A stretch of DNA of 12,117 nt from Rodentolepis nana (lineage: Eukaryota > Platyhelminthes > Cestoda > Cyclophyllidea > Hymenolepididae): positions 1 through 12,117 of the forward strand of contig UZAE01014110.1 in the NCBI GenBank assembly GCA_900617975.1, given 5' to 3'. The translations under genes were made by a program, and so were the position numbers. The notes under the pieces were generated by a model, which saw only the letters and a program-made list of their open reading frames with translations, did no database searches and was not told the DNA's origin. Positions 1 through 12,117 of the stretch are shown piece after piece (positions within the stretch are counted from its first letter, which is position 1; each line of letters opens with the position of its first letter).

Positions 1-1069
1 CCCCCCTCCTCCTCCCGCCCTACAACCCCCATATCCACAAGCATATTTTACTCCCTGTCTTAATTCATCGCTCAATTGCTCTATTCACCCTCTCTCCCTC
101 ACTCCCTCACCCGTGCTCCACCTATTCCAGTGACTCCTGTTCACTTAACCTTCTCCCTGCCTTGTCTTGACTCTCCGCTCTATTTTCATGGTGAGGTTTG
201 GTACAAGCTCAAAGGTACGCACTCTGCAAGAGTCTTGATAAAGTAACTTGGGCTTGATGTAATGCATCTTCCTGAAATTGAGGCACTCAAAGTGGAATTT
301 GGGGTTTCAAATAAAATCAATGCTACAAAAAATGAAAATTGCACTGACATATTCCAAGGGACATTTGACGCTATTGAGGTTTAAATTTAATTTTAACAAG
401 TTGTATTATATTGGAAAAAGTTGAGGATTTGAAAAGAAGTTAGTTGGCTGCATCATTTGAACTTTGAACTGGACATCTGCAACAACTCCGCTCGCACAAA
501 AGACACGCATGATGCAATAATAGGTGCAAGTAATTAATTGCACAGCAACAAAGAATAACAGTAACAATAATTACAATCAATAAAAACCACTCCGTTTCAT
601 AAAATCTCCGTTCATAAGTAATAGGCTGACCTGAAATAAACGAAAAATTATTATGTACTGATAAGGTGAAAAGGTGAATAAGTCAATAAAGATGAGCATG
701 TAAAATTGTTGACGATACAACACAAGAAATTCAAACGATTCTAACCAATGGATCCATTTCTAGGCGAACGATTTCAAATTGCACTGATTTTTGTGCCAAA
801 TTAGGCCTATGAATGTGGAACGTTTAATCCAGTTGAACAGTTTCAAGTAAAGATGCTAAATGTCAGACAGCTTAACATCAACAAACTCAAAATATCCAAT
901 AGTGAGCATGATGCATCATTGGAGATCAATGTTGATTGGATCTACGTCTGGGTACCTAGCTCACCTCTTATTCTATTCAATATTATCCTAACCAAACTGT
1001 AGTGCAAATAAATGGAATGCTTGAAGGTAGGCATTCTGTCAATCCTTCGAAACCTTCAAAGCTTCAAAC
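1..1069. other. Gene-free flank with pyrimidine-rich start
   Basis: I see no supported gene here. The first 180 bases are strongly pyrimidine-rich on the plus strand, with runs of C and CT, and then the sequence becomes ordinary AT-rich non-coding DNA. It lies downstream of minus-strand gene A, so the 3' end of that transcript may enter it. I found no AATAAA on the minus strand in the 400 bases below the last candidate exon. The 61-codon plus-strand frame at 1002-1184 runs antisense to a candidate exon of gene A and has no signal, family motif or coding-like bias, so I leave it out. Confidence 0.5.
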
Positions 1070-1119
1070 TTTGAATTTCCAATGGACAGCACGCTCAATA
1101 AGAATGACAAAAGACAACT

Positions 1120-1160
1120 TCAAAAGCAATCATCAATTTCCATTAACTTTGCATATTCTG
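1120..1160 (-). CDS. Gene A possible last exon, weak
   Basis: After the GTAAGT that closes exon 2, an acceptor TTGGTGCAG at 1161-1169 is followed by a short frame. If exon 2 is read in its proline frame, the split codon G|CA gives Ala, then EYAKLMEIDDCF and a TGA at 1120-1122. Unit B has the aligned frame ECEKLLEINVCF with its stop in the same place, but there the split codon T|GA is itself a stop. The differences between copies are mostly amino-acid changing. This exon applies only if the proline frame is the real one. Confidence 0.22.
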
Positions 1161-1235
1161 CTGCACCAAGCTGAATGCAACTGAAGGTGTAGACGACACT
1201 TTCAACATCATTCCTTTATCAACTCACTGACTTAC

Positions 1236-1277
1236 CAATATACACGTGTCTGTGCACAATTGGAGGAGGTACAGCAT
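1236..1277 (-). CDS. Gene A exon 2: mature-peptide exon
   Basis: This 42-base exon is bounded by TTTAG at its start, after about 60 bases without another AG, and by GGTAAGT at its end. Unit B has the same boundaries but 24 more bases, so both lengths are multiples of three. Two frames are open. Joined directly to exon 1 (phase 1) it reads NAVPPPIVHRHVYI. The alternative frame reads CCTSSNCAQTRVYW and then a TAA lying inside the donor. In the cysteine frame the first three differences from unit B are all silent, which favours it, but reaching it needs a middle exon ending in phase 2. I am fairly sure this is an exon and unsure of its frame. Confidence 0.5.
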
Positions 1278-1802
1278 CTAAAGCATTTCAAAACCATTGT
1301 CAATCAAGAGCAACATAACAGGACATTATGTGTGGGAGGCTTTCTCATTTAAATGCCAAAAAATAAAACTCTGAGTTCACTTATAAGGATGTGGAAATGC
1401 CAATACTTCAGTCTGTCTTCACTCACAATACCTCCATACAAGACGCCATCGCACAGAAACTGGCAAAATATATAAATTCATGTTGGCTTGAACATTTACT
1501 TGTTGATCAAAGCTTCTACTGTTGACCCAGTTACATGTATTTCAAGGTCTTCGCTTGCCAATGAAGCAGAGTTTTGAAGAATTTGAGCTAAATTATCTGC
1601 GCCCTGCTCTCATTTAAGTAGACATTTCACATTGAGCTAAGTAGCATTTAGCCAACGGATCACAACTGAGCATACCATTACTCAAGTAAGATAGTAAAGA
1701 GAGGAGGATAGGGGATGAGGCAGTTGAATTGTAATGGTGAGGACTCTGAAGGCGAGTCAAACAAATTAACCTGGAAGATCAAATCGGATGAGGTAACTCC
1801 AC

Positions 1803-1884
1803 CTCAGCATTGCAACCTTCACCACATATTCCGCCACTTCCTCCTCCGAGAATCTTGAATTTGTAGTAGCCTCAGTATGCGTTA
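1803..1884 (-). CDS. Gene A possible middle exon (acidic spacer), weak
   Basis: Within intron 1 of gene A, an AG at 1885-1886 is followed by 82 bases that continue the exon 1 frame without a stop. They encode a Thr/Glu-rich, partly helical stretch (key residues FSEEEVAEYVVKVAML) with many G-first codons. A GTGGAG donor at the end leaves phase 2, which would put the next exon (1236-1277) into its cysteine-rich frame. Signal, acidic spacer and cysteine-bearing end would be a normal secreted-peptide layout. Against it: the acceptor has a poor pyrimidine tract, the donor is weak, and unit B has no matching exon here. It may be chance. Confidence 0.22.
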
Positions 1885-2076
1885 CTTAAATTTGTGTTAT
1901 GAAATTGTGAAAGCATGGTAGAATTACTTGAAGTGAACAAATGCGAATTCGGTATTTGAGTACTGTGGACTTAATCCCTCAGAAATTACAACAATAAAGT
2001 AACTAAAAATGCAAAAATTGGTAAAACGGTAAATCCAATGAAGTATGTTATCACGAAGATAAGAGTAGATACTTAC

Positions 2077-2137
2077 TAAGTGGAGATTGTACCGTGACAA
2101 GGAGAAGAGTTGCGAGAAGGTAGAAAAGACAACGCAT
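2077..2137 (-). CDS. Gene A exon 1: signal peptide of small secreted protein
   Basis: On the minus strand, ATG at 2135-2137 opens 20 codons plus one base, ending at an AGTAAGT splice donor (GT at 2075-2076). The peptide starts MRCLFYLLATLLLVTVQS: a basic residue, a hydrophobic leucine-rich core and a polar end, which is a textbook secretion signal. Cleavage would fall near VQS. A TATA box lies about 50 bases upstream and the leader between them is short. The copy in unit B differs at two codons, one silent (ACT/ACA) and one conservative (Leu/Val). This start is chosen because it is the first ATG after the TATA box and is conserved. The exon ends in phase 1. The product is probably a secreted peptide precursor. 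I do not recognise the family. Confidence 0.8.
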
Positions 2138-2182
2138 TCTAGTGGGGGTGTGTGTGAGTAGTTCTATTCAGTTGAATTGACG

Positions 2183-2207
2183 TTTATATACTTGTGTACA
2201 TGACGTC
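2183..2207 (-). promoter_or_regulatory. Gene A core promoter: TATA box and CRE-like site
   Basis: On the minus strand TATATAAA occupies 2183-2190, with the start codon about 50 bases downstream, so transcription should begin near 2155-2162, where TCACAC-type initiator sequence lies. Just upstream of the TATA box, TGACGTC at 2201-2207 is seven bases of a CRE/ATF site. Both elements and their spacing are kept in unit B, apart from one base lost between them. A TGATAA GATA-type motif at about 2531-2536 is also shared. A GGAAATTTC match to a Rel-type site near 2350-2358 is weakened in B. Site identities come from motif matching only. Confidence 0.7.
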
Positions 2208-3008
2208 TATGACCTGACAGAATATGTGATATTCTACTTAAGCATAGCTGATGGATATTTCATTAAAATTCTCAATTTCGAAACAAAGCATCATGACAGC
2301 ACTGCAATTATTGCTGGTCACAAACTGAAGTGCTAACGATGAAGGTCACGAAATTTCCATGAGATGACATTTGAGTTTTCTCCTTAATAATTTGAGCAGC
2401 CATGACCCATTTTACCTGACAAGAAAGCAAATTTGAGCCCTATTTTAGCCTTATTGTGATCGATGTTTCATAGGAAATATTTGAATATTTTCAATCATTT
2501 CGAGTATTTAAACATGAGAGTAGCGAAATTTGATAAGGAAAAAGTTAAGCAGTGTGTGAATTCTGAAATCGTCCGATTCGCATATTCCTAATTGTTCATC
2601 GTCATTTTATTAAAATTTTCCATATCACTGATACATTGAAATTACTTGTGGTATTGCGTTAACTGTTTCCATCACTACTCTCTAAATGTACTTCTCCCTC
2701 TCTAGACCCAACATTGAAACCATCCATCCATTCTACGGGCTTGACGTCATCCACAGAGAAGTGTTCTAAACAGACCACAAATTGATGTCACTCTCCACTT
2801 TAATTACAGACGATAACGCACTTACAACACTTCTACCATGCATTCGTCTAGCGTTAACTTTCATCTCAGTAGACGTATACCACAATTACATTTGAATTAG
2901 TAGCATTCGTGTGAATGTACTCACTACTCCTGAGACCACTGACCTTTTGCAGAGTTCAAATGTGAAAGCATCCAATTTTCCCGCCTTGAATTCGTTTAAT
3001 CTATCGAT

Positions 3009-3125
3009 ATGGGATATTATGTCATGGCATCGTCATGTAAGCAAAATAATTCACTTACACATTTTAAGGCCTGTGGGAACAACGGAATGAAGTGTAAAAT
3101 GGGACCTGTCGACCTTGGCTTATAA
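3009..3125 (+). CDS. Small plus-strand ORF with three cysteines, uncertain
   Basis: ATG at 3009 opens 38 codons to TAA at 3123-3125, lying between the two duplicated units on the opposite strand. The frame contains three Cys, and its last 18 residues are ACGNNGMKCKMGPVDLGL, with a composition unlike the surrounding AT-rich DNA. A TTTTAAG at 3062-3068 could serve as an acceptor, making 3069-3125 the last exon of an unseen plus-strand gene. There is no signal peptide, promoter or polyadenylation signal that I can tie to it. Open frames of this length are expected by chance. Confidence 0.2.
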   Translation: MGYYVMASSCKQNNSLTHFKACGNNGMKCKMGPVDLGL

Positions 3126-3465
3126 GCTTAATTAACTAATTTTTCCAATTTACGAATATCATTGCTGTTCTTATTCTTCCAAACACGTTCAATTGAAGGG
3201 CAAAGTAGACAAAACACTGAAGTGCGTCATTTGAATCACTGAGTAGCTTAACGTTAGCGATAATCATAGCCAATCTGCTTGTTAATTAATTGAACTGATT
3301 GACACCTTCGACTCGATAGACATACCCTAATTTTAAATACGCGATAAGCGAGTTTCCACCCACTCAGTTTTCCTTCCTGGGATAACTCCCATAACTAGAG
3401 TTCATTAAGATGAACTCAAACCACAGTAGTACGACATTATCGATATACCGATGGGGTGATTGTAA

Positions 3466-3471
3466 TTTATT
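3466..3471 (-). terminator. Candidate polyadenylation signal of gene B
   Basis: AATAAA on the minus strand, about 75 bases beyond the TGA at 3544-3546 and about 190 beyond exon 2. It is correctly placed for the end of the gene B transcript. Such hexamers are frequent in AT-rich DNA, so support is positional only. Confidence 0.4.
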
Positions 3472-3659
3472 GTACATTTTCACAGCTTCCAAGTGAGAGT
3501 TCCAAGTGGAAGGCCGGCTCAATAGGAATGACGAAAGACTAGTTCAAAAACAAACATTAATTTCTAATAACTTTTCACATTCTCCTGAACCAAGATAAAT
3601 GCAAATGAAACTGTAAATGTAACATCCAACAGCATTCCTTTACCAACTCAATGACTTAC

Positions 3660-3725
3660 AGATATACGGGTTTCTTCGCACAGTTGGAGGAGGTGCAGCA
3701 CTTCCACTCCTTCCTCTTGGCGTAT
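3660..3725 (-). CDS. Gene B exon 2: mature-peptide exon with 24-bp insert
   Basis: This 66-base exon lies between a TTTAG acceptor and a TGTAAGT donor, aligned with 1236-1277 of gene A but with eight extra codons near its start. In the frame reached directly from exon 1 it is Pro/Arg-rich (PRGRSGSAAPPPTVRRNPYI) and the next candidate junction makes a stop, giving a precursor of about 42 residues. In the other frame it reads YAKRKEWKCCTSSNCAKKPVYL in part, with a dibasic KR ahead of a cysteine cluster and a TAA inside the donor. The cysteine motif CCTSSNCA is unchanged from gene A with three silent differences. An in-frame indel at intact splice sites supports a real coding exon. The frame is open to question. 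Confidence 0.5.
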
Positions 3726-4268
3726 CTAAAGCATTCCAAAAGCATTGTCAATCAAGAGCAACACAACAGGAAATTTTGTGTGGGAGGCTCTGTCATTCAA
3801 ACACCAGAAATGAAACTCTGAGTTCTCTCGTAAGCATGTAGAAATGTCAATACTTCAGTCTGACTTCAGTCTCAATATTTCCGAATAGGACTCCATAATC
3901 ACATAACCACCTGTTGGTTCCAACCTTTGGTTGTTGATCGATGCTTCTGCGTTGATTCAATCACTTGTATTCCAAAGTCTCCGCCCACCAATTCAGGTTA
4001 CTGTTGAAGAACGCAAACAAAGTGATTTGTGTTCTGCTCTCATTTTGTTCGGCTGCATTTAGACATATGATCACTTATTGAGGTGCTTATTCCATCTGAG
4101 TACACCTCGAATAAGTAGGATAGAGACATAGTCTGCATCGATCGGTAAAACGAGGTGAAATGTCACGTTCACACCACAGGTGTAGGCCATGAAACCAGAT
4201 GGATCAAGTTATCTAAGAGGATCATTTCAAATGAATTATCTTCAACCAACAATGAAACTTATACATAC

Positions 4269-4328
4269 TCCGACAAGAAATTTGATTCCGTGGAATACTA
4301 ACAATGGGGAAATTGTGCCACCAATTTT
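4269..4328 (-). CDS. Gene B possible middle exon, weak
   Basis: In intron 1 of gene B, CTACTTAG is followed by 60 bases bounded by a good GTATGT donor at 4263-4268. The phase 1 frame from exon 1 stays open: a split AAA codon, then residues beginning NWWHNFPIVSIPRN and ending with CR, and it leaves phase 1 again. That would feed exon 2 in its proline/arginine-rich frame. Unit A has no convincing counterpart, since the candidate there has different boundaries and phase. It may be a copy-specific exon or chance. Confidence 0.2.
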
Positions 4329-4564
4329 CTAAGTAGTATTTAAATTATGAAATTATTGAAGCTATGTAGAATTACTTGAAGCGAATTGAAGCAAATTCGG
4401 TTCTTGAGAAATGTGGACGAACCATGGTGGTGAAAGATAAAATTTCCTAATATGGATTTTTTCACTCAGAAATAACTAAAACAATGTAGCGAATAGTGCA
4501 AAAATAGGGTAAAACTGTAAGACAAATGAAATATGTTATCACGAAGATGAAAGTCGATACTTAC

Positions 4565-4625
4565 TAAGTGGAGATTGTACCGTGACAACGAGAAGTGTTG
4601 CGAGAAGGTAGAAAAGACAACGCAT
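4565..4625 (-). CDS. Gene B exon 1: signal peptide of small secreted protein
   Basis: Minus-strand ATG at 4623-4625 opens 20 codons plus one base to an AGTAAGT donor (GT at 4563-4564). The peptide is the same signal sequence as in gene A, with one Leu replaced by Val in the hydrophobic core and one silent change. No stop or frameshift is present, and the promoter, leader and donor are intact, so this copy should be transcribed and spliced. The exon ends in phase 1 with a single A. The mature part lies downstream at lower coordinates. Family unknown. Confidence 0.8.
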
Positions 4626-4670
4626 TCTAGTGGGGGTGTGTGTGAGTAGTTCTATTCAGTTAAGTTGACG

Positions 4671-4694
4671 TTTATATACTGTGTACATGACGTC
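4671..4694 (-). promoter_or_regulatory. Gene B core promoter: TATA box and CRE-like site
   Basis: TATATAAA (minus strand, 4671-4678) lies about 50 bases upstream of the gene B start codon, with TGACGTC at 4688-4694 behind it, as in unit A. The sequence from the start codon to about 5170 is nearly identical to unit A, more so than the intron. The two genes therefore probably share regulation, or have been homogenised by gene conversion. Confidence 0.7.
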
Positions 4695-5174
4695 TATGAC
4701 CTGACAGAATATGTGATATTCTACTTCAGCATAGCTGATGGATATTTCATTAAAATTCTCAATTTTGAAACAAAGCATCATGACAGCACTGCAATTATTG
4801 CTGGTCACGAACTGAAGTGCTAACAATGAAGGTCATAAAATTTCCATGAGATGACATTTGAGTTTTCTCCTTAATAATTTGAGAAGCCATGACCCATTTT
4901 ACCTGACAAGAAGGCAAATCTGAGGCCTATTGAATCCTTATTGTCATGGATGTTTTTTAGGAAATATTTGAATATTTTCAATCATTTCGAGTATTTAAAC
5001 ATGAGAGTAGCGAAATTTGATAAAGAAAAAGTCAAACAGTGTGTGAATTCTGAAATCGTCCGATTCGCATATTCCTAATTGTTCATCGTCATTTTTTTAA
5101 AATTTTCCATATCACTGATACATTGAAATCACTTGTGCTATAGTGTTAAATGTTTCCATTACTACTCTCTGAGA

Positions 5175-5175
<1 letters not shown>

Positions 5176-5209
<34 letters not shown>
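5176..5209. repeat. (TA)17 microsatellite
   Basis: An uninterrupted TA run of 34 bases. It begins six bases after the end of similarity between units A and B, and A lacks it, so it marks the duplication edge or an insertion point in unit B. Confidence 0.97.
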
Positions 5210-5211
<2 letters not shown>

Positions 5212-5891: not shown

Positions 5892-6270
5892 ACGTTGTTC
5901 TCAAACACTTGAGTAAATAACATGACTCAACCTGAAATTTCAGCCCACTTTAATCTTATTTATTCATTTTTGGGTATTTGATCTAACATTAGATTTAGTG
6001 ACAAAATATTGTATAATGGACTAGTCAATATTTTTGGACTAAGGAACGTCCATTCAAGTGCAATATTGACATCGACTAAGAATTTAATTCTTTTGGAAGT
6101 CTGAAAATTTAAAATATAAAACGCAATGGAGAATAGAATTATGCACGTGGATATTCTCTTTTGAAGAATTTAACCATGCCAATTTTATGCTAGAGTCAAA
6201 AGTCCTGGGTTTTTACTTAATGTCGCAGAAACTGCTCGCCTTCAACAGAGTTCATAAGTACAATCTTCTA
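5892..6270 (+). repeat. 379-bp direct repeat, left copy (assembly overlap)
   Basis: Matches 6272-6650 end to end with the same length and no indels. Differences are few and mostly cluster around 6129-6172. The left copy ends on the base before the N and the right copy starts on the base after it, as expected when two contigs with overlapping ends are joined without merging. No gene is visible inside. Confidence 0.95.
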
Positions 6271-6271
6271 N
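6271..6271. other. Assembly gap (single N)
   Basis: One undetermined base separates the two 379-bp copies. It is a scaffold join of unmeasured size rather than a single uncertain base call. Confidence 0.95.
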
Positions 6272-6650
6272 ACGTTGTTCTCAAACACTTGAGTAAATAA
6301 CATGACTCAACCTGAAATTTCAGCCCACTTTAATCTTATTTATTCATTTTTGGGTATTTGATCTAACATTAGATTTAGTGACAAAATATTGTATAATGGA
6401 CTAGTCAATATTTTTGGACTAAGGAACGTCCATTCAAGTGCAATATTGACATCGACTAAGAATTTAATTCTTTTGGAAGTCTGAAAATTTAAAATATAAA
6501 ACGCAATGAAGAATAGAAATATGCACGTGAGTGTTCTCTTTTGTAGAATTTCACCATGCCAATTTTATGCTAGAGTCAAAAGTCCTGGGTTTTTACTTAA
6601 TGTCGCAGAAACTGCTCGCCTTCAACAGAGTTCATAAGTACAATCTTCTA
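6272..6650 (+). repeat. 379-bp direct repeat, right copy (assembly overlap)
   Basis: Second copy of 5892-6270. The clustered mismatches fit two haplotypes of one locus better than a biological tandem duplication. Confidence 0.95.
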
Positions 6651-8655: not shown

Positions 8656-9093
8656 TTAGATCTTCAGCCTTGGAAACCACGTTCCAACAAGAATTATAGC
8701 AAACCCTGTCTCGAATGAAGATTTTGTGCTGTCAAAATTGCTTATTTGAGAAATGGATGCTGTAGGTAAGATCACCTGTTCTATCTGAATGAAGAGTTGT
8801 AATTGATTGACGTACTCACAAACTCTTTCCTTAAAAGCAGCGAAGGAGTGGCAACAAGTGTAAATAATATCACTTAAAAAAACAGAGTACCCCTGAATGC
8901 AAGTGAGGGAAATCGTACTCTCTGGCACATTGAATCCTAGTAAAACGAATCTCCATGGATTAGGACTTGCCGTAAACGAAACGTGATTGTGGTATTTCCT
9001 TTTCACACATTCAAGGAGTACGTTGCTGTGCTTGACATGGAAAGGTAAGTGAGTGACATATTTAAAATGAGTAAATCCAGAATGTTGCGAATA
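8656..9093 (-). CDS. 146-codon open frame, unknown, partly inside inverted repeat
   Basis: The minus strand is open from 9093 to a stop at 8656-8658, the longest open frame in the window. It has no clear ATG; the first usable start would be a GTG at 9004-9006. Residues include KYHNHVSFTASPNPWRF and a central part with several Cys (SDIIYTCCHSF). Bases 8854-9017 recur inverted at 11954-12117, where the same frame is also open and one Lys becomes Glu. In that copy the repeat begins right after a TTAG, as an exon would. I do not recognise the protein. It may be an internal or last exon, a retrocopy, or an untranslated repeat that is open by chance. Confidence 0.3.
   Translation of the reverse strand, partial: YSQHSGFTHFKYVTHLPFHVKHSNVLLECVKRKYHNHVSFTASPNPWRFVLLGFNVPESTISLTCIQGYSVFLSDIIYTCCHSFAAFKERVCEYVNQLQLFIQIEQVILPTASISQISNFDSTKSSFETGFAIILVGTWFPRLKI
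8854..9017 (-). repeat. Inverted repeat, left arm
   Basis: The reverse complement of 11954-12117: 164 bases with no indels and one mismatch, which I found at the GAAAAGG/GGAAAGG position. The right arm runs into the window end, so the full arm is longer than seen. The inner boundary is sharp at TCCTTGAATG. Near identity means a recent event or an assembly artefact. Confidence 0.95.
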
Positions 9094-9168: not shown

Positions 9169-9520
9169 CCCTTTAGCTGACTTCGGGCTGTAGACGGAAC
9201 ATCCAAGTAACAGAAAGTCGAGGGATGGGGAACAGTGAGAGGAGGAGGAACATCAAAGTGAGAAAAAGTCGAGAGGTAGGGAGGAACATTAGAGTGAGAA
9301 AAATTCGACAGGGGAAAAGAAGAGCGATTCACATCAAAGTGACAAAAAGTCGAGAGGGTGGACAGAATAATGATTTAACCCTTTAGCTGACTTTGGGCTT
9401 CACAGAGAGGAGGAGGAAACACATGTAACAGACAGACAGACACAAAGTCAGAGAAAAGGCTAGATGAGTACTGTGAAGGGAGGGAAAATGCTAGATGAGT
9501 ACTGTGAAGGGTCAACTGCC
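9169..9520 (+). repeat. Degenerate purine-rich minisatellite
   Basis: A 210-bp period is marked by CCCTTTAGCTGACTT.GGGCT at 9169-9189 and 9379-9399. Between them, variants of AACATCAAAGTGAGAAAAAG followed by TCGAGAGG recur starting near 9198, 9249, 9285 and 9330. A related tail follows at about 9420. GCTAGATGAGTACTGTGAAG then occurs twice with a 31-base period (about 9459 and 9490). Strongly purine-biased on this strand, with no gene. Confidence 0.8.
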
Positions 9521-9599
9521 AGTTAATAGACTTTTTTGCCGTATTAGTATACGTTGCCCAGGGTGCACCACGTGGAGGTAAGTCTATCGCACACCCCTC

Positions 9600-10420
9600 A
9601 ATAGACTAAAGGTGTTGAGATTCGAAATACGACTTATAACGTCTGTCAACACGCCTCTTTCAACATCGCCACACTGAATTATCGATTCTAAGTGACCAAT
9701 TTCATCCAGCAATCGGTCATTATTTTTTTTATAAAAGAATTTCAATAATCTGTCCATAATTCTGCCTTGCGATAATCATGTGATTTTTGAAACATACTTT
9801 CAAATGCAAAAAATGATCCATGAACTATCCGTCAATGGTAAATCAATTGAGAATTCTGTCGGCAATCTGTCAGTAAACAATGATTTGTGGTGCTATTTTT
9901 CCATTTAAATGTACTAAATTGTTTAACTGTTTAGTCTAAAAAATTTTTCAATGTTCACGGCTTATTCAGGTGCATTCATTTTTAAAAAACTCTTTTTTAA
10001 CAATAAATTATGCTCTCTTCCAGGTTGGTGAAATATCCCAAAAAACACAGAAGGTGAACTGAATTATATTTACGTTTAAGAGAACCTTGCCTTGTCCGAT
10101 CTCCGAACATATCAAGTTGATCGCCTTTTCAAATGAAAGTTCAAGCAGACAGGGCACTGTTTCTGGTTATTTCACACCTTTCGTTAAATGCTTCTAGTGG
10201 TTGTCTCTCATTTGACAGATCATCTTCGGTGTTGTAGTGATCACCTTCACTAGCAAAGAGTCCAAAACACAGGAGGTCAATAAACCAGGTTACTCTTTTG
10301 CGCTCACCTTTCAGTTGTGATCAATGTTCGACAATACGTGAAGTGGAATTGCTTGAGGAATGCGTCATCTGAATTTCGGCGTCTTTATCTCCCACCTGAA
10401 CTTGTCTTAACCGACTAACA
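9600..10420. other. Stretch without supported features
   Basis: AT-rich DNA between the minisatellite and two short ORFs. I see no coding frame, RNA gene or repeat that I can support. Confidence 0.45.
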
Positions 10421-11626: not shown

Positions 11627-11953
11627 CGTGCTCCGTGCTACACGTCTGTTTCCTTTATAGCTAGGCTATAGCTTAGCTGATTCTGGGAGTCTAGCTAGAT
11701 GTTGGAGAATCTGGCCTAGAGATTTCTAAGTCGGTCAGGCTTTACTAAGGTAGCAATCCGCTACAATCTATTCTCGAAAATATCGCTTTGAATTTCTAGT
11801 CATTTAGCAAAGGTAATTTTTGAAAAAAGGGCATTAATTAAGTAAGTTGAAGAATTACGTGTTTTGGAAAATGAATAAGTGAACGGAAGACACAGAAAGG
11901 GAAATGGGAAAAATTGTTTAAAGCATTCACTTAAAAACACTTTGCCAACTTAG

Positions 11954-12117
11954 TCCTTGAATGTGTGGAAAGGAAATACCACAATCACGTTTCGTTTACG
12001 GCAAGTCCTAATCCATGGAGATTCGTTTTACTAGGATTCAATGTGCCAGAGAGTACGATTTCCCTCACTTGCATTCAGGGGTACTCTGTTTTTTTAAGTG
12101 ATATTATTTACACTTGT
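11954..12117 (+). repeat. Inverted repeat, right arm (cut by window end)
   Basis: The reverse complement of 8854-9017 with one mismatch. It begins immediately after TTAG, so it may start at a splice acceptor, and the same reading frame as in the left copy stays open to the window end. The arm continues outside the window. Confidence 0.95.

What the first reader, a model, noticed from the sequence alone, without database searches (positions are those of the whole stretch)
1070..5170. Tandem pair of secreted-peptide genes with frozen signal exon and diverging mature exon
Seen: two same-strand units share TATA box, CRE-like site, leader, signal-peptide exon and donor almost base for base, while the downstream exon differs in length by 24 bases in frame and in several residues. 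Known: this contrast is typical of fast-evolving secreted peptide families such as host-defence or venom peptides. Inference: an undescribed small peptide family in an invertebrate. No family name fits what I can read.
Basis: partly seen in the sequence, partly recalled or inferred. Interest (0 to 1): 0.8.

Follow-up and report, generated by a model that had tools for sequence, protein, structure and literature searches.

The report
Tapeworm micro-exon secreted gene pair
Two neighbouring copies of a small secreted-protein gene from a tapeworm belong to a family that looks built, like the known micro-exon genes of parasitic flatworms, from a signal-peptide exon plus tiny exons that can be lost or lengthened without breaking the reading frame.

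Summary
Two minus-strand units (signal exons 2137-2077 and 4625-4565) in a ~2.49 kb tandem duplication share a TATA box, leader, 61-nt signal exon and donor; the next exon is 42 or 66 nt.

The "frozen signal exon" is mostly regional: ~650 bp of promoter plus signal exon are ~94% identical, and the exon is not significantly more conserved than its upstream DNA (2/61 v 39/599, p=0.25).

The genome is read as a non-taeniid acetabulate tapeworm (mitochondrial tRNA order; one TPI exon). The signal exon has 11 places on 6 contigs, 9 intact. Paralogues carry series of phase-1 exons divisible by three (21-78 nt), above chance in 4 of 8 spans tested, but not in the window's own two.

Best reading: a tapeworm micro-exon gene (MEG) family, a known flatworm kind. 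The window pair shows one small exon per copy and does not itself meet the working MEG definition; paralogue C2822 does on paper. In two paralogue pairs small exons differ about three times more than introns (one depends on a cut chosen afterwards), with dN near or below dS; the window pair shows no excess. Transcripts, 3' ends, tissue and function are unproven.

The parts
2183..2190 (-). TATA box (TATATAAA) of copy u1
4671..4678 (-). TATA box (TATATAAA) of copy u2
2077..2137 (-). signal-peptide exon of u1, 61 nt, MRCLFYLLATLLLVTVQSPL, ends in phase 1, donor GTAAGT
4565..4625 (-). signal-peptide exon of u2, 61 nt, MRCLFYLLATLLVVTVQSPL, ends in phase 1, donor GTAAGT
1236..1277 (-). predicted small exon of u1, 42 nt, phase 1 to phase 1, (N)AVPPPIVHRHVYI
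   Evidence: homologous to 66-nt exons of the paralogues
3660..3725 (-). predicted small exon of u2, 66 nt, phase 1 to phase 1, (N)TPRGRSGSAAPPPTVRRNPYI
   Evidence: homologous to 66-nt exons of the paralogues
1050..2693 (-). duplicated segment, copy u1 (approximate ends)
3474..5180 (-). duplicated segment, copy u2 (approximate ends; upstream end at a TA microsatellite)

Best explanation
The pair are two tandem members of a tapeworm micro-exon gene (MEG) family. Each has its own TATA promoter and a signal-peptide exon ending in phase 1. Downstream exons in the family are short, begin and end in phase 1 and are divisible by three, so each can be skipped, added, lengthened or shortened without disturbing the frame; the 24-nt difference between the window copies is such a change. 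Shown by sequence: promoter, signal exon, donors, acceptors, exon phase and length, and paralogues with series of such exons. Inferred: that they are transcribed and spliced as drawn; that the product is secreted; that it is a short, poorly structured peptide released where parasite meets host. Open: whether the two signal exons start two genes or are alternative first exons of one, and where the 3' ends lie.
For: 11 signal-exon places on 6 contigs, 9 of 11 with ATG, frame and a GT donor at base 61. A profile of the 66-nt exon with flanks gives 25 sense hits on all six contigs (11 are its seeds), none antisense, none in reversed sequence. Phase-1-open exons divisible by three, counted by donor: C2822 7, C3969 3, C2368 3, C1239 4 against 0.33, 0.06, 0.06, 0.10 expected, 0 of 100 resamplings reaching each; antisense 0 in all 8 spans; 1 in 102,272 control bases. 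Pooled candidate lengths mod 3 on the sense strand 44/10/9, antisense 5/4/5, overlapping candidates counted apart. Tapeworm origin: S2-L1 tRNA order, TPI exon. Tandem MEG families with a shared N-terminal motif are known in a tapeworm (PMC7653826).
Against: No transcript data. The window copies show one small exon each, and 4 of 8 spans, the window's two among them, are not above chance (C4079 c 1, reached by 11 of 100; C4079 a 0; u2 1, reached by 7 of 100; u1 0). Non-symmetric open candidates also occur (C3969 2, C2368 1, C4079 a 2). No terminal exon or poly-A site could be fixed. Some exons are longer than the 70-nt limit (75, 78, 111 nt). C2822 has a degenerate second signal exon inside the span, so it may be more than one gene. 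Signal-exon changes are not concentrated at third codon positions (254/192/177). No relative was found in the protein library.
Confidence: 0.72

Rival explanations
1. One gene with two alternative promoters: the duplication copied promoter, signal exon and first small exon inside a single MEG. A transcript from 4625 would use the 66-nt exon, pass over the second signal exon and go on to the 42-nt exon and exons beyond the contig end.
For: Same strand and order; both small exons are in phase 1 and end at strong donors; no further 66-nt-type unit lies between 3660 and 2137; the contig ends downstream of 1236.
Against: Each copy has a full TATA promoter and signal exon, and other contigs also carry several such units in tandem; neither fact excludes it. 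A poly-A-like AATAAA at 3471 follows the 66-nt exon.
Confidence: 0.25
2. Ordinary two-exon genes: the 42/66-nt segment is the start of the last exon, read through the apparent donor to a nearby stop, giving secreted peptides of about 40-48 residues.
For: Reading on without splicing gives stops soon after...ICKSLSW* and ...IGKSVS*; u2 has AATAAA at 3471.
Against: Both keep GTAAGT exactly at the exon end; lengths divisible by three and series of such exons in four paralogous spans; u1 has no AATAAA at the matching place.
Confidence: 0.15
3. Degenerate copies: the window pair are decaying members whose other small exons have been lost and which make no product.
For: One small exon each in view; 2 of 11 signal exons in the family are broken; no 51-nt-type exon in the window.
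Against: Intact TATA, ATG, frame, donors and acceptors in both copies; the 24-nt change is in frame.
Confidence: 0.15
4. A venom- or defence-type cysteine peptide family of another invertebrate.
For: Only the general contrast of conserved signal and variable mature part; a cysteine-rich reading exists in another frame.
Against: Tapeworm origin; in the frame set by the signal exon cysteine occurs in 1 of 18 listed family exons and in neither window exon.
Confidence: 0.03

Closest known systems
Tandem MEG family of the tapeworm Hymenolepis microstoma (ten MEGs in one region of Chr6, shared motif MRLFILLCFAVTLWACPKQCP; PMC7653826, passages seen)
   Same: Tapeworm; tandem copies; shared N-terminal motif; small exons divisible by three.
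   Different: The motif differs from MRCLFYLLATLLVVTVQSPL; homology could not be tested because the gene tables are in supplements that were not open here.
Schistosome MEGs (PMC5825161 and PMC4350168, passages seen)
   Same: Signal peptide, short symmetric exons, secreted products, copies that diverge; mature part changes faster than the signal part there.
   Different: Schistosome exons are given as 6-36 bp with ~80% of the coding region; here 21-78 nt, 42 and 66 in the window. No sequence homology tested.
Small secreted salivary gland proteins of the Hessian fly (recalled, no paper looked up)
   Same: Signal and introns more alike than the mature coding part.
   Different: Insect, not built of micro-exons; an analogy only.

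Membership tests
Micro-exon gene, working definition of PMC7653826 | Micro-exons: under 70 nt and divisible by three | tested here: met
   Window exons 42 and 66 nt; paralogues 21, 51, 57, 66 nt, also 75 and 78 nt over the limit. Predicted, not transcript-based.
Micro-exon gene, working definition of PMC7653826 | At least seven exons, at least half micro-exons, a run of at least four - in the window copies | tested here: inconclusive
   One small exon per copy found; the 3' ends are unresolved and the contig ends downstream of u1.
Micro-exon gene, working definition of PMC7653826 | The same in paralogue C2822 | tested here: inconclusive
   Signal exon then 51, 51, 51, 66, 66, 66, 75 nt, plus one 51-nt exon with a GC donor and one 66-nt exon with a weak donor: meets the numbers if this is one gene; a degenerate signal exon lies inside the span.
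Micro-exon gene (general) | Signal peptide, secreted product | tested here: inconclusive
   A hydrophobic N-terminus is encoded in 9 of 11 intact copies; no signal-peptide predictor was run and no secretion data exist.
Micro-exon gene (general) | Protein variants by exon skipping | not testable with these tools
   No RNA data.
Micro-exon gene (general) | Parasitic flatworm | tested here: met
   Mitochondrial order Y-S2-L1-L2-R-nad5; TPI exon best match 6oog, recalled as Taenia solium.
Cysteine-framework venom or defence peptide | Conserved cysteines in frame with the signal | tested here: not met
   Neither window exon has cysteine in phase 1; 1 of 18 listed family exons does.

The most novel reading that the evidence does not exclude
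In this tapeworm MEG family change is concentrated in the small exons themselves. Between close paralogues the exons differ about three times as much as the introns around them, at silent as well as replacement sites, as if exon contents were replaced or specially mutated while introns were kept or homogenised: an exon-confined way of diversifying a parasite's secreted proteins beyond exon skipping and ordinary positive selection.
Probability: 0.15. Interest if true: 0.7.

Novelty: new member of a known kind. Interest (0 to 1): 0.42.

Why it matters
MEGs are a flatworm puzzle of little-understood function; PMC7653826 (passages) calls curating them across lineages a high priority and says orthogroups cannot yet be set with confidence. 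A family with recent paralogues whose small exons and introns can be compared base by base lets one ask whether MEG exons change by selection, by exon replacement or while introns are homogenised. The window pair adds a clean in-frame 24-nt change between copies that share promoter and signal exon.

Tried and rejected
Cysteine-rich peptide: a CCTSSNC-like reading exists around the 42/66-nt exon in another frame; rejected because the signal exon ends in phase 1. Arthropod effector or venom family: dropped once contig C1797 proved to be flatworm mitochondrial DNA. Monogenean origin: considered from genome size and GC, dropped on tRNA order and TPI; GC alone does not exclude it, since monogenean genomes are given as 31.3-37.7% GC (PMC10308649, passages). 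More small exons of the 51-nt type in the window: none. Terminal exon: a candidate in C3969/C2368 is not claimed; no AATAAA or ATTAAA lies within 1 kb after it. A donor for replaced exons: searches with the C1239 75-nt exon and the window 66-nt exon found only themselves. Phage collection: no match. The guessed motif was uninformative (80 and 93 hits, controls 93 and 77). Three antisense hits to the signal motif on C2822 were dropped as chance. The degenerate C2822 copy was left out of the identity counts (10 of 11 rows used).

Exon against intron divergence, both ways. C3969/C2368: 19/144 v 47/1164, p=3.6e-5; C2368 has lost the first acceptor, and with its 57-nt exon 16/135 v 50/1173, p=6.4e-4; the 21-nt exon has no difference. 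C2822/C1239: over the whole stretch 29/141 v 165/631, p=0.93; in the clearly homologous part 29/141 v 26/395, p=8.9e-6, a limit set after seeing the alignment, and 25 of the 29 differences lie in one 75-nt exon at its edge. Window pair: 9/42 v 66/342, p=0.44. dN and dS: C3969/C2368 0.129 and 0.129 (first exon taken as 66 nt); C2822/C1239 0.044 and 0.134 (66-nt exon), 0.376 and 0.723 (75-nt exon); window pair 0.285 and 0.142 on 13 codons.
Full report
What is there. The window is the whole of contig C4135 (12,117 bases) of an unnamed 107-Mb assembly in 4701 contigs. On the minus strand two units lie in a tandem duplication of about 2.49 kb. Each has TATATAAA (2190-2183; 4678-4671), a short leader, and a 61-nt exon encoding MRCLFYLLATLL(L/V)VTVQSPL that ends in phase 1 at GTAAGT (2137-2077; 4625-4565). 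Some 800 and 840 nt further on comes a 42- or 66-nt segment between TTTAG and GTAAGT (1277-1236; 3725-3660). In the phase set by the signal exon they encode (N)AVPPPIVHRHVYI and (N)TPRGRSGSAAPPPTVRRNPYI.

How frozen is the signal exon? The copies are about 94% identical over some 650 bp of promoter plus signal exon (2/61 exon and 39/599 other differences); similarity falls off soon after the donor. The exon is not significantly more alike than its upstream DNA (p=0.25). Over all pairs of 10 family copies (the degenerate C2822 copy left out) the signal exon is 76% identical, the 100 bases upstream 70%, the start of the intron 49%: real but modest conservation. Differences do not favour third codon positions (254/192/177). 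A recent local gene conversion, or joint constraint on promoter and signal, explains the pair better than a frozen exon alone; this is inference.

Which organism. A COX1 profile led to C1797, mitochondrial DNA with its genes on one strand. From cox1 the order is T, C, cox2, E, nad6, Y, S2, L1, L2, R, nad5, G, cox3, H, cob, nad4L/4, F, M, atp6, nad2 (gene names by my reading of the frames; one further Leu call inside cox2 taken as spurious; rRNA genes not searched). The S2-L1 order is called a putative synapomorphy of acetabulate tapeworms, reverted in taeniids (PMC8727539, passages seen). An 85-residue TPI exon matches PDB 6oog best (140 bits; 65 of 75 aligned residues identical by my count), then 6r8h and 7qon (127 bits); 6ooi (107 bits) ranks 14th, behind many others. 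That 6oog, 6r8h and 6ooi are from Taenia solium, Fasciola and Schistosoma mansoni is recalled; the output names only the molecule. I read the genome as that of a non-taeniid acetabulate tapeworm. GC is 35.7% in 25,993 bases of nine loci.

The family. Genome searches with three signal-exon queries and a motif scan of the fetched contigs give 11 places on 6 contigs: C4135 two, C4079 three, C2822 two, C3969 two, C2368 one, C1239 one. The tool calls its counts lower bounds. Nine of 11 keep ATG, frame and a GT donor at base 61; one C2822 copy has neither ATG nor donor, one C3969 copy has a one-base deletion. TATA[TA]A lies within 80 nt upstream in 7 of 11.

The small exons. A profile of the 66-nt exon with flanks gives 25 sense hits over the six contigs (11 of them seeds), none antisense, none in reversed sequence. 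Predicted exons after the C2822 signal exon: 51, 51, 51, 66, 66, 66, 75 nt, with a further 51-nt one having a GC donor and a 66-nt one with a weak GTGACT donor. C3969: 66, 21, 57; C2368: 57, 21, 57; C1239: 66, 75, 66, 78. Control (first-order Markov resampling, 100 each; 15-90 nt): distinct donors with a divisible-by-three, phase-1-open exon number 7, 3, 3 and 4 in the C2822, C3969, C2368 and C1239 spans, against 0.33, 0.06, 0.06 and 0.10 expected; 0 of 100 reach each. The other four spans are not above chance: C4079 c 1 (11 of 100), C4079 a 0, window u2 1 (7 of 100), window u1 0. Open candidates not divisible by three number 0, 2, 1, 0, 0, 2, 0, 0 in the same eight spans (C2822, C3969, C2368, C1239, C4079 c, C4079 a, u2, u1). 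Antisense strands give 0 in all 8; 102,272 control bases give 1 (and 3 not divisible by three). Of 18 exons listed (chosen by hand; one C2368 row shown there as 66 nt is 57 nt by its acceptor) 12 hold an N-glycosylation sequon; neither window exon does.

What kind of thing. In flatworms micro-exon genes have several exons divisible by three and mostly encode secreted proteins (PMC7653826, PMC4413821, PMC5825161; passages seen). H. microstoma has 52 by a working definition (exons under 70 nt, at least seven exons, half of them micro, a run of four), ten in one tandem family with a common N-terminal motif. C2822 meets these numbers if its exons form one gene. The window pair, with one small exon each in view and the contig ending downstream, does not. 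I place the pair in a MEG family by homology to the paralogues, not because it passes the test itself.

How it probably works. A shared TATA promoter and signal exon would send a short peptide into the secretory pathway. Because the junctions are in phase 1, small exons can be added, lost, lengthened or skipped without loss of frame. Promoter, phase and the in-frame length change are shown by sequence. Expression, splicing, secretion and a role at the host surface are inferred from schistosome MEGs, where mature parts have higher dN/dS than signal parts (PMC4350168, passages).

How the exons change. C3969/C2368: exons 19/144 v non-exon 47/1164 (p=3.6e-5), or 16/135 v 50/1173 (p=6.4e-4) allowing for the lost acceptor of C2368. 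C2822/C1239: 29/141 v 26/395 (p=8.9e-6) in the clearly homologous part, a limit set after seeing the alignment; over the whole stretch 29/141 v 165/631 (p=0.93); 25 of the 29 differences lie in one exon. Window pair: 9/42 v 66/342 (p=0.44). dN equals dS in C3969/C2368 and is below dS in both C2822/C1239 exons, so positive selection in the narrow sense is not shown. Exon replacement, homogenised introns or chance in short exons remain possible; no donor was found for two exons searched.

Novelty. A 74-residue model of the C3969 gene has no relative in 5.8 billion predicted proteins at that tool's sensitivity; the share of flatworm proteins there is unknown to me. Paper searches show MEGs already described in tapeworms; one passage names micro-exon gene organisation as a proposed neodermatan gain (PMC4398949). 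In the passages I saw, this signal motif did not appear, but supplements were not open, so the family may be annotated somewhere. Rating: a new member of a known kind.

Noticed in passing
window 5892-6191 and 6272-6571: Two 300-base copies, 98% identical, 380 bases apart, with a single N at 6271 just before the second: looks like an assembly join that repeats the same DNA.
   Followed up: no
window 8854-9025 and 11946-12117: 172-base inverted repeat, 98% complementary, whose second arm is the contig's end: a mobile-element arm or an assembly fold-back.
   Followed up: no
window 9370-9610: Dispersed repeat: 2910 first-look candidates in the genome, 40 scored, 63 matching pieces listed. Its sequence also shows beside the MEG copies on C2368 and C3969.
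   Followed up: partly
window about 5176-5210: A TA-dinucleotide run sits at the upstream edge of the duplicated segment, a possible breakpoint.
   Followed up: no
C2822:34812-35107 and C1239:1258-1552: C1239 repeats the last predicted exons of C2822 with nearby introns about 93% identical, but one 75-nt exon only 67% identical: a paralogue or divergent haplotype with one exon that looks exchanged.
   Followed up: partly
C4079:2142-2252: A 111-nt phase-1-open exon after the first C4079 signal exon, longer than other family exons and not of the 66-nt type.
   Followed up: no
C1797: 11,487-base mitochondrial contig with flatworm gene order, starting or ending inside nad2.
   Followed up: partly
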